Source of the DNA: Bacillota bacterium
GTDB lineage: Bacteria > Bacillota > Clostridia > Christensenellales > DTU072
Direction: 5' to 3'
DNA: 34,026 bases
Assembly: GCA_009781445.1 (NCBI GenBank)
Contig: WQYD01000014.1
Location: forward strand, 1 to 34,026
The notes beneath the pieces are model-generated. The model was not told the DNA's origin. It saw nothing but the letters and a program-made list of their open reading frames with translations, and made no database searches. Position 1 is the stretch's first letter; each line of letters opens with the position of its first letter. Positions 4,663 through 31,048 of the stretch are shown piece after piece. A program made the translations under genes and the position numbers.

Positions 4663-4825
4663 GGAATCTAATTATCATTATATATCAGCGCACAGCGCAC
4701 AGCGCACAATGAAGGATTCTAAATATCATTATTAACTAATCCGCAATTCGTGCTTTGTACTTCGTACTTCGTACTTAAATTAATTATTCCACCATTGTGC
4801 GCTGTGCATTGTGCGCTGTGCGCTG
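4663..4825. repeat. Modular heptamer/core element 1
   Basis: Core 4663-4681; (cagcgca)x3+caatgaa 4686-4713; core GGATTCTAAATATCATTATTAACTAATCCGCAATTC 4714-4749; gtgcttt/gtacttc x2/gtactta 4750-4777; inverted heptamers attgtgc/gctgtgc 4794-4825. Confidence 0.9.
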
Positions 4826-4839
4826 AAAAAATATTAAGA

Positions 4840-6633
4840 ATGAACAAACTTAAGGCTTACATATCCAAATTCATGTCCTCATTCACGGTTAAAATGAGTG
4901 AAAAACCCATTTTAATGACTGTGGTTTTGCTTTTGTTTGCCAACCTTATAATTTTAGCGGTTGCTTCGGTGGTTGCGATTGCGTTGCAGGCGGATTTGTA
5001 CGCAAATTATTTTACCGCTTTCGCGTCTGCCTTCCGCTGGCTGATTTTGCCTAACTCAATTTCACAGATAGATCAATCAGAACATTTTAGCACCCTTGTG
5101 CTTGCCATTGTGGTGGTTGTGTGCGGTATGATTTTATTCACAGGCACAATTATTGCGGTTGTTACCGCTTCACTCAGAGATTATATTGCAAAAATCGGCG
5201 GTGCTAAGGGAAAATTAAACTTATCAGATCATATTGTTATTTTAAATTATAACCGTGAGGTTACCACGATTCTTTCGGATTTAATGCACAGCGGCACGGA
5301 TACCACGGTGCTTATTTTATCGGATAAAACTAAGGAATTTGTGAAGGAAGATTTGGCTTCGGAAACTGCCTCAATGGAAGATCCTGCAAATTGCAAGCTA
5401 AGGCTTGTGGTTAGGCAAGGCAACCCGAATAACCTGCAAGATTTAAAAGAAATCGCGCTTGAAAAGGCGCGTGGCATTATCGTGATGAGTGCTGAAAATA
5501 ATAATTCGGATTTTAGCGCAATTAAACTTGCAATTAAATTATCCTCACTTGATATTCCCAAGACTTGCCCTATCGGAATTGAAACTGATTGCTACGGTTC
5601 GGCGAAAACAATCCGCCAATTACAGCAAGAAATTTCGGGGCTTAAGGATAAAAGCATTCAGCCATTTTCAAGCAGAAGAAAACTTGGGCAGTTTCTTGCT
5701 TTAACCATTATTAACCCCGATTTTTCGGGCGTGCTGAATGAACTTCTTTCATTTAAAGGTTGCGAATTTTACCCTGCCGAAGGAAAGGACATTGAACACT
5801 ATCTTGAAAATTACAGCAGGGTTGTGCCTGTGTTTGCTTCGGATAAAACTTATCTTCTTGCCGAAAGCCCTGAGTGCATTACGCAGAAAAGAATTGCGCC
5901 GTACAAAACTGACAGGATTTTACCCTTAAGCAAAAAAGCAACTGCACCGAAAGAAATTAAACTTTATCTAATAGGCGAAAATAATAAAATTGAATATATG
6001 CTTGAGGCTTTAAAAACTCAAAAAGCAAATGTTAAACTTTATAGCTACGATATAAATAATATTGAAAAATTTGCAAAAGATGTTTCCGAACAAGGGGACG
6101 AAAACAGCGTTGCCGTGATTTTAAGTGATGACACCGCCCCGCCCGAAAACCATGATTTAAATGTGTTCTTAACGCTTATTGAACTTGCAAAGCGCAAGAA
6201 TTATAACGAAAGATTATTTAAGGTGATTGCGGAAATTCTTGAACCCGAAAACCAATCAGGGATTAGCGAATTTCATGTGGAAAACATTATTGATTCCACA
6301 AAAATTGTAAGTTTTTTTGCCACAAAGCTAATTAGTGATCCGAGTGCAGGCTTGTTTTATGAGGATATTTTCTCACATACTTCAGATTTTTCGGATTTTT
6401 GGATTGATAAAGCCGAAAATTTATTTGATTTAACAGATTTAAAGCCCTTTAACTCTTATGCGGAATTTGTGCGCGCGGTTTATAACGGTTCGGGGAAAAC
6501 TCTGATACCTATCGGCATTCTTATTAACGGTAAAAATGAATTTTTCTGCGAAGAACTTGACACGCAAAGAAATTTTACAATAACCAACAACGATAAAATT
6601 ATTTATATGGCACTCAATGAAAAAACTATTTAA
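4840..6633 (+). CDS. CASTOR/POLLUX-like ion channel with RCK/TrkA-N type domain
   Basis: Two or three N-terminal TM segments, then DHIVILNYNREVTTILSDLMHSGTDTTVLILSD. Start set at ATG 4840 because the track start at 4750 lies inside repeat element 1. Confidence 0.72.
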   Translation: MNKLKAYISKFMSSFTVKMSEKPILMTVVLLLFANLIILAVASVVAIALQADLYANYFTAFASAFRWLILPNSISQIDQSEHFSTLVLAIVVVVCGMILFTGTIIAVVTASLRDYIAKIGGAKGKLNLSDHIVILNYNREVTTILSDLMHSGTDTTVLILSDKTKEFVKEDLASETASMEDPANCKLRLVVRQGNPNNLQDLKEIALEKARGIIVMSAENNNSDFSAIKLAIKLSSLDIPKTCPIGIETDCYGSAKTIRQLQQEISGLKDKSIQPFSSRRKLGQFLALTIINPDFSGVLNELLSFKGCEFYPAEGKDIEHYLENYSRVVPVFASDKTYLLAESPECITQKRIAPYKTDRILPLSKKATAPKEIKLYLIGENNKIEYMLEALKTQKANVKLYSYDINNIEKFAKDVSEQGDENSVAVILSDDTAPPENHDLNVFLTLIELAKRKNYNERLFKVIAEILEPENQSGISEFHVENIIDSTKIVSFFATKLISDPSAGLFYEDIFSHTSDFSDFWIDKAENLFDLTDLKPFNSYAEFVRAVYNGSGKTLIPIGILINGKNEFFCEELDTQRNFTITNNDKIIYMALNEKTI

Positions 6634-7075
6634 AGCACTTTTACTAATATTATTTTACATAATTAACTTTACTTGGGGGATACTGCAAAACCTTTTGGGT
6701 TTGGTGTTTTTAATTAAATACAGAAAATGCAGAAAGGAAAGGTATTACAATACTTTGCTAACCTATCATGAGGAAGGTTGGGGCGGAATTTCGCTTGGCA
6801 TTTTCCTATTTATAGGCGCAAAGCACAATGAGGCATGGCAAACAAAGGCACGCCCGCATGAATTGGGACACACAATTCAATCCTTAATTCTTGGGCCTTT
6901 ATTCTTAATTATTATCGGCTTGCCCTCTGTGATATGGTGCAACTTTTGCGTGAAGGTTTGGCGCAATCCTGAAAACAATAACGCAAAGTATGACGACTTT
7001 TATCCCGAAAGAAACGCTAACTGGATAGGCGAAAAAATTACGGGGATTCCGCTTGCGCGGGGAAATGATAGATAG
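6617..7075 (+). CDS. Small membrane protein with HExxH-type motif (HELGHTIQS), function unknown
   Basis: N-terminal and C-terminal hydrophobic helices flank HELGHTIQSLILGPLFLIIIGLPS; overlaps the preceding CDS by 17 nt. Confidence 0.75.
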   Translation: MKKLFKALLLILFYIINFTWGILQNLLGLVFLIKYRKCRKERYYNTLLTYHEEGWGGISLGIFLFIGAKHNEAWQTKARPHELGHTIQSLILGPLFLIIIGLPSVIWCNFCVKVWRNPENNNAKYDDFYPERNANWIGEKITGIPLARGNDR

Positions 7076-7083
7076 ATCATTGA

Positions 7084-30798: not shown

Positions 30799-30805
30799 CT
30801 TATTT

Positions 30806-30834
30806 ATTATATATTATATAAAGCGAACTTGCAA
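30806..30834 (-). promoter_or_regulatory. Promoter of the 1968-aa gene, -10 only 7 nt from ATG
   Basis: Minus strand: TTGCAA (30829-30834), 17-nt spacer, TATAAT (30806-30811), 7 nt, ATG. Confidence 0.6.
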
Positions 30835-30890
30835 TAACAAAATCTTTAAATTTATGTAAAAAATAAGCAAGCAGTGCGGAAAGCTACTGC

Positions 30891-31048
30891 TTTAGGGTTT
30901 AGGGGATAGGCAATAGGCATAGCGTTTAAATATGAAATATGAAATGTGAAATGTGAATTGTGGAATCTAAATATCATTATTAGTTAACCCACAATTTTGC
31001 ATTCTGAATTCTGAATTCTGCATTATTTAGTAGCCATAGCTACGGAAT
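30891..31048. repeat. Heptamer/core element 5 plus 24-nt hairpin
   Basis: tttaggg x2/gataggc/aataggc 30891-30925; tgaaata/tgaaatg 30933-30960; core 30962-30997; tgcattc/tgaattc x2/tgcatta 30998-31025; hairpin 31025-31048. Confidence 0.9.

What the first reader, a model, noticed from the sequence alone, without database searches (positions are those of the whole stretch)
4663..31048. Dispersed modular element: variable 7-bp tandem arrays attached to a conserved core GGAATCTAAATMTCATTATT
Seen directly: about 10 copies of the core (4663+, 4714+, 7152+, 8985-, 9042-, 20744+, 22403-, 23206-, 23269-, 30962+), nearly all preceded by an array of 2-5 tandem heptamers and often followed by another after ...TTARTTAATCCRYAATTC. 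The period is always 7, but the unit changes completely between copies: cagcgca, ggttgca, cgagaaa, tgaaatg, gaattca, gaagtac (5' side); gtacttc, tgaattc (3' side). Plain slippage would not be expected to hold one period across unrelated units, so a templated or protein-imposed 7-nt register is worth considering (inference). The nearest described analogue I know is the cyanobacterial STRR heptanucleotide repeats, which lack this core as far as I know. No candidate machinery is encoded in this window.
Basis: partly seen in the sequence, partly recalled or inferred. Interest (0 to 1): 0.88.

Follow-up and report, generated by a model that had tools for sequence, protein, structure and literature searches.

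The report
Heptamer-armed hairpins from S23-protein elements
Hundreds of short hairpin-like DNA elements in this uncultured Clostridia genome have arms built of 7-letter repeats, and the same kind of arms frames small genes for a ring-forming protein (S23p/IVP) in several bacterial phyla, which gives the long-unexplained bacterial heptamer repeats a candidate source.

Summary
The window has 10 cores (0.01 expected); the genome has 338, absent from relatives. Within 60 bp of a core all 286 tandem tracts have period 7 and none has any other period from 4 to 13. About 12 unrelated words are used. Word orientation is strict: in 138 of 138 multi-array chains all "forward" arrays lie 5' and all "reverse" arrays lie 3', so the elements are (often mismatched) palindromes stacked at the core.

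It encodes four S23p/IVP four-helix-bundle genes (PF05635), each beside period-7 arrays; two carry the genome's commonest words. In 71 IVP loci from other genomes, plasmids and viral contigs, 51 have period-7 arrays within 200 bp, 41 on both sides, 37 with inverted matching words. Controls (ParE, Y1 transposase): 1/44, 0, 0.

A second genome repeats the whole design with a different core. There one IVP element carries both ends of the dispersed centre, with the IVP gene between them, so the dispersed copies look like gene-less (MITE-like) derivatives.

Mobility and a protein-imposed 7-nt register remain inference. Novelty: new variant linking two known kinds (STRR heptamers, S23p intervening sequences).

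The parts
4663..4682 (+). core copy (2 mismatches), no 5' array
4686..4708 (+). forward 7-bp array, word CAGCGCA
4714..4733 (+). core copy
4747..4776 (+). reverse array, word GTACTTC
4793..4825 (+). reverse array, word TGTGCGC/TGTGCAT, complementary to 4686-4711
   Evidence: RNA fold z -8.7
7083..7114 (+). forward array, word AGGGCAT
7131..7146 (+). forward array, word CAGCGCA
7152..7171 (+). core copy
8716..8747 (-). reverse array (minus-strand element), word AATTCTG/AATTCTT
8985..9004 (-). core copy
9009..9039 (-). forward array, word GAAGTAC
9042..9061 (-). core copy
9065..9095 (-). forward array, word GAATTCA
20711..20738 (+). forward array, word CAGCGCA/CAACGCA
20743..20762 (+). core copy
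20780..20807 (+). reverse array, word GTACTTC
20829..20859 (+). reverse array, word TGTGCGC; 35-nt arm 83% complementary to 20707-20741
   Evidence: DNA fold z -5.5
22383..22407 (-). reverse array, word AATTCTG
22419..22438 (-). core copy
22449..22472 (-). forward array, word GGTTGCA
23142..23157 (-). reverse array, word TGTGCGC
23171..23209 (-). reverse array, word AATTCTG with variants
23214..23233 (-). core copy
23237..23262 (-). forward array, word GCAGGAT/GCAGGTT
23269..23288 (-). core copy
23294..23318 (-). forward array, word CGAGAAA
30928..30961 (+). forward array, word AAATATG/AAATGTG
30962..30981 (+). core copy
30993..31024 (+). reverse array, word AATTCTG

Best explanation
The dispersed elements are the gene-less (MITE-like) derivatives of a small mobile element whose only gene is an S23p/IVP four-helix-bundle protein (PF05635) and whose two ends are inverted arrays of about four 7-bp repeats. 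Shown: the arrays are oriented inward around a core; IVP genes in many bacteria lie between inverted period-7 arrays whose word differs from locus to locus; in a second genome an IVP element and the dispersed copies share both inner ends. Inferred: the arms pair as hairpins in single-stranded DNA or RNA; the S23p ring (related solved structures are pentamers) holds the arms and sets the 7-nt register; new modules insert at the core (apex) of old ones, giving the stacked chains; arms are exchanged between elements through the shared core, giving the word swaps. Which enzyme cuts and joins is unknown.
For: Period 7 only beside cores. Polarity 138/138 chains. G000 has four IVP genes, 0 of 14 control genomes have any. 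All four lie beside period-7 arrays, three between inverted matching arrays; two carry words that are also the commonest dispersed words. Across 71 other IVP loci: 51 any, 41 both sides, 37 inverted-matched (7.9 expected on shuffling right arms), 34 distinct words among 41; 107 period-7 tracts nearby versus 11 of other periods; controls 1/44 any, 0/44 both, Fisher 6e-15 and 7e-12. G063: 142 period-7 tracts, one ~95-bp centre framed by at least five words, matched on both sides in 18 of 20. IVP element L254 there has the centre's left ~64 bp and right ~30 bp with the ORF between, and L255 shows an end in the opposite orientation. Paralogous pair: same core and flanks, different heptamer word. 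Independent literature: the Coxiella S23p intervening sequence has tandem heptamers GACAGAT just upstream of the S23p start (PMC4990558). IVP ORFs are intact; L115/L116 dN 0.23 with saturated dS.
Against: No empty site or target duplication was found, so transposition itself is inferred. S23p has no known catalytic activity. 20 of 71 IVP loci show no arrays at my cut-offs (12 of 20 in the same-order sample), and most IVP-bearing genomes sampled have no dispersed copies. In G000 no IVP element carries the 20-bp core, so the end-sharing proof rests on G063. Outer arm words match only in part in G000 (37 of 120, 21.5 by shuffling; not significant without the CAGCGCA word), and unit order is not mirrored between arms. 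Plasmid and viral loci were found by similarity to G000-type IVPs and include near-duplicates.
Confidence: 0.78

Rival explanations
1. RNA-level elements: the inverted arrays are selected as long RNA stems that let RNase III or another nuclease cut the element out of host transcripts, as for S23p intervening sequences in 23S rRNA. Period 7 is then a by-product of stem growth.
For: Strong folding (z -8.7 as RNA). Elements sit close to stop codons (median 11 bp) and lie more often in the gene direction (60 versus 34). The IVS of Coxiella is excised by RNase III at its heptamer region (PMC4990558). IVP genes lie inside operons.
Against: Many arms are mismatched words (for example GCAGGTT...GAATTCT) and cannot pair. 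Elements also occur between convergent and divergent genes.
Confidence: 0.3
2. Slippage-born simple repeats: polymerase slippage favours 7-nt units, and S23p genes merely live in such regions.
For: Heptamers dominate long repeats in many genomes, and slippage was proposed as the cause (Mrazek 2007, as cited in PMC4679880, and PMC4692102). Copy number varies between Coxiella strains (PMC4990558).
Against: Does not explain the inverted matching pairs (37/41 versus 7.9 shuffled), strict polarity, shared cores with swapped words in two genomes, or absence of period-7 tracts from 301 kb of relatives.
Confidence: 0.08
3. REP/REPIN-like palindromes moved by a RAYT or an IS200/IS605 transposase.
For: G000 has one IS200-type TnpA and one RAYT-like gene.
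Against: Each lies among a different palindrome family, and Y1 transposase loci show 0 of 23 heptamer arrays.
Confidence: 0.04
4. Reverse-transcriptase templated repeat addition (telomerase-like or DGR).
For: G000 has two RT genes, and DGR accessory protein Avd is a four-helix bundle (own knowledge).
Against: Both RTs look like DGR enzymes and one is broken. A dozen words would need a dozen templates, and unit variants are not A-specific.
Confidence: 0.05

Closest known systems
Cyanobacterial STRR heptanucleotide repeats (and Xanthomonas GGGAATC, Beggiatoaceae TAACTGA arrays)
   Same: 7-bp units, few copies, intergenic, dispersed. Xanthomonas arrays are mostly 4 units, with 70-75 convergent inverted pairs (PMC4692102). 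Nostoc plasmid arrays read here are also inverted pairs and frame a four-helix-bundle gene.
   Different: Described so far with one or three words per genome and no core or gene partner. Here about 12 words share one core with strict polarity, and the IVP link is drawn.
S23p/IVP intervening sequences of 23S rRNA (Leptospira, Coxiella)
   Same: Same protein family, inverted terminal stems, and in Coxiella tandem heptamers before the ORF (PMC4990558).
   Different: Here the elements lie outside rRNA, between and inside operons, with gene-less derivatives in hundreds of copies.
MITEs / REPINs
   Same: Short, palindromic, non-autonomous, dispersed, many copies.
   Different: Terminal repeats are variable heptamer arrays rather than one fixed sequence; no DDE or Y1 transposase partner found.
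Streptococcal BOX elements (own knowledge)
   Same: Modular, repeated internal units.
   Different: No heptamer arrays, no word swapping.

Membership tests
STRR heptanucleotide repeats | tandem 7-bp units, a few copies, dispersed in intergenic DNA | tested here: met
STRR heptanucleotide repeats | one of the published units (CCCCART, TTGGTCA, CAACAGT; own knowledge) | tested here: not met
   none of these is among the word families
S23p/IVP intervening-sequence elements | S23p/IVP ORF flanked by inverted repeats | tested here: met
   for the four IVP loci of G000 (three with inverted matching arms) and 37 of 71 loci elsewhere; the window copies themselves have no ORF
S23p/IVP intervening-sequence elements | inserted in a 23S rRNA helix and excised by RNase III | not testable with these tools
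   no 23S rRNA gene in the MAG; window copies are intergenic
MITE of an IVP element | shares both ends with a gene-bearing element in the same genome | tested here: met
   met in G063 (L254); in G000 only words and connectors are shared
MITE of an IVP element | target-site duplication / empty site | tested here: inconclusive
   no clear duplication at 41 CAGCGCA elements; no second strain available
REP/REPIN with RAYT | RAYT gene flanked by the same palindrome | tested here: not met
CRISPR array | unique spacers between identical repeats next to cas genes | tested here: not met
   the 35-38 bp between tandem cores are heptamer arrays from a small set

The most novel reading that the evidence does not exclude
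Bacterial heptamer repeats in general (STRR, Xanthomonas, Beggiatoaceae, Coxiella and here) are the interchangeable ends of one widespread, unrecognised class of mobile element driven by S23p, whose ring-shaped protein imposes a 7-nt register on any sequence and so rewrites the arms without a template.
Probability: 0.3. Interest if true: 0.95.

Novelty: new variant of a known kind. Interest (0 to 1): 0.86.

Why it matters
Heptanucleotide repeats have been noted in many bacteria with no accepted origin, and S23p proteins have a solved fold but no function. If the two are halves of one element, both questions become directly testable, and a tiny one-gene mobile element present in several phyla, often inside restriction-modification and other defence operons, has been overlooked. 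A protein that fixes a repeat period without fixing its sequence would be new biochemistry.

Tried and rejected
Consensus RRNNNAY for all words: suggested by G000, but 9 forward versus 5 reverse of 40 at IVP loci, so rejected; only a mild purine excess in left arms (30 versus 10) remains. Mirrored unit order between the two arms of one element (template switching): no signal, p 0.68. RAYT or IS200 transposase as mover: each has its own palindromes. Reverse transcriptase as source: DGR-type, one broken. CRISPR-like array: spacers are not unique. Core in other genomes: one chance hit. Core in viral contigs: none. 23S rRNA insertion in this genome: no 23S in the MAG. First attempt to place IVP ORFs by a motif was faulty and was replaced by match coordinates.

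Full report
CHECK OF THE OBSERVATION. The ten cores are there (0.01 expected in shuffled sequence). The window is contig 14 of a 1.89-Mb uncultured Clostridia genome (G000; nearest named proteins are Clostridia and Christensenellaceae MAGs). That genome has 338 cores on both strands and none of the reversed control pattern. Relatives have no real copy: 58 genomes of the same family or order gave three 2-mismatch hits (the one read, has no arrays), and the GTDB r220 scan gave one chance hit inside unrelated sequence.

PERIOD. In 824 kb of this genome the tandem tracts found by a neutral scan were 366 of period 7 (plus 254 at period 14, 47 at 21, 7 at 28) against 0-14 for every period that is not a multiple of 7. 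Within 60 bp of a core the count was 286 to 0 for periods 4-13 other than 7. In 301 kb of relatives there was not one period-7 tract outside runs of N. The units fall into about a dozen word families, each with two or three variants. CAGCGCA arrays are mostly exactly four units; the first and last unit are almost always CAGCGCA, and variants CAACGCA or CAATGCA occur inside.

ARCHITECTURE. Every word has a direction. When arrays and cores are chained, all forward arrays lie 5' of the centre and all reverse arrays lie 3', in 138 of 138 chains with more than one array. The grammar is (forward array + core) repeated 1-4 times, then (short AT-rich linker ending in AATCC + reverse array) repeated 1-3 times. 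Tandem forward modules are spaced mostly 48-58 bp. So these are palindromic elements, often stacked. The outermost words match more than by shuffling (37 of 120 against 21.5), almost entirely through the CAGCGCA family. Elements fold far better than shuffled sequence (z -5.5 as DNA, -8.7 as RNA; arms). They sit a median 11 bp behind stop codons, are depleted between divergent genes, and lie in gene direction 60:34. One recent gene duplication gives a natural experiment: both copies keep the same flanks and the same core, but one has GAATTCA-type units before it and the other ACGAGAA/ACATGAA-type units.

THE GENE. Reading Nostoc plasmids as a comparison, I saw that their heptamer arrays are also convergent pairs, and that one pair frames a gene annotated 'four helix bundle protein'. 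G000 has four such genes (Pfam PF05635, 23S_rRNA_IVP; none in 14 control genomes). All four lie beside period-7 arrays: CAGCGCA arms around L116, GAATTCA arms around L115, AGTGCAG arms around L114, and an AATGATA inverted pair beside L117. The first two words are the commonest dispersed words of the genome. L116 matches the solved pentamer-chain entry 2RLD at E 1e-42, and weakly 2GSC, XCC0516 of Xanthomonas campestris, the species with 186 GGGAATC arrays and 70 inverted pairs (PMC4692102).

TEST ELSEWHERE. I took IVP loci chosen by protein family or similarity only: 20 uncut loci from same-order genomes, 12 plasmids from five phyla, 27 from a Bacillota-wide sample and 12 from IMG/VR. Period-7 arrays lie within 200 bp in 51 of 71, on both sides in 41; in 37 of the 41 the two sides carry inverted matching words, where shuffling right arms among loci gives 7.9 (largest 16). 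There are 34 distinct words among the 41. Nearby tracts of other periods: 11, against 107 of period 7. Control genes treated the same way: ParE toxin 1 of 21 (and that one in G000 itself), Y1 transposase 0 of 23, none on both sides. Fisher p is 6e-15 (any) and 7e-12 (both). Caveats: plasmid and viral loci were found through G000-like IVPs and some are near-duplicates; the same-order sample is weaker (8 of 20).

SECOND GENOME. G063 (same order, another family) has 142 period-7 tracts in 424 kb. Forty-eight inverted pairs lie 60-125 bp apart, most of them around one common ~95-bp centre, quite different from the G000 core, framed by at least five word families with matching words on both sides in 18 of 20 strictly defined copies. 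Three of its four IVP genes lie between arrays of three of those same words. In L254 the ~64 bp after the left array and the ~30 bp before the right array are the two ends of the dispersed centre, and the IVP gene lies between; L255 shows a centre end in the other orientation. That is the relation of a gene-bearing element to its internally deleted derivatives. It also shows the 'fixed core, changing heptamers' design arising independently of the G000 core.

LITERATURE. The intervening sequence of Coxiella burnetii has tandem heptamers (GACAGAT) directly before its S23p ORF, varying in number between strains (PMC4990558); the authors do not generalise. Heptamers as the dominant class of long repeats, with a polymerase-slippage proposal, are from Mrazek 2007 as cited in PMC4679880 and PMC4692102. 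I found no open-access paper tying S23p/IVP genes to heptamer arrays as a class; subscription papers and preprints are not covered.

HOW IT MOST LIKELY WORKS. Shown: inverted heptamer arms, strict polarity, IVP association, gene-less derivatives. Inferred: the arms fold back, S23p binds them as a ring and sets the 7-nt register, elements insert preferentially in the apex of older elements, and recombination through the shared core swaps arms. The protein is under strong purifying selection (dN 0.23 with saturated dS) and slightly basic. It has no known catalytic site, so a host enzyme or an RNA step must do the cutting. An RNA-processing role, as for rRNA intervening sequences, remains the main rival and is compatible in part.

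Noticed in passing
L150, L154, L156-L160 (plasmids of Monoglobus, Chlorohelix, Anabaena, Dolichospermum, Planktothrix, Pseudanabaena, Gloeocapsa): IVP genes with heptamer arms lie inside defence operons: hsdS-IVP-hsdR, helicase-IVP-methylase, cas2-IVP-cas1, drmD-IVP-MmeI, DUF1156-IVP-Swt1/HEPN. Either an insertion preference or a functional link.
   Followed up: partly
L057 412-2331 and L058 419-1993: Two diversity-generating-retroelement-like RTs with Avd-like neighbours in G000; the second RT is split by a frameshift or deletion. Avd and IVP share a fold (own knowledge).
   Followed up: partly
window 1-150 and 8740-9010; L055 290-1390: A second dispersed family of long GC-rich branched hairpins (CCGTGGGTT..AACCCACGG, CTGCCC..GGGCAG) clusters beside an IS200/IS605 TnpA and is also inserted inside heptamer elements.
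   Followed up: no
L056 1066-1878: RAYT-like transposase flanked by GGGGACGGAGGAAATGG palindromes, a third palindrome family.
   Followed up: no
G528:C150 4002-8790, G265:C38, G513:C1, G438: IVP genes, many of a second subfamily (R-A-A-x-S-I-x-x-N-I-A-E-G), occur in tandem clusters of 2-5 copies.
   Followed up: no
window 9090-20651 (-) and 24892-30798 (-): Very long ORFs of 3853 and 1968 aa in a 1.9-Mb genome; not characterised.
   Followed up: no
L109 4766-5115 (IMG/VR contig): Five adjacent period-7 arrays with different words in an unrelated environmental contig.
   Followed up: no
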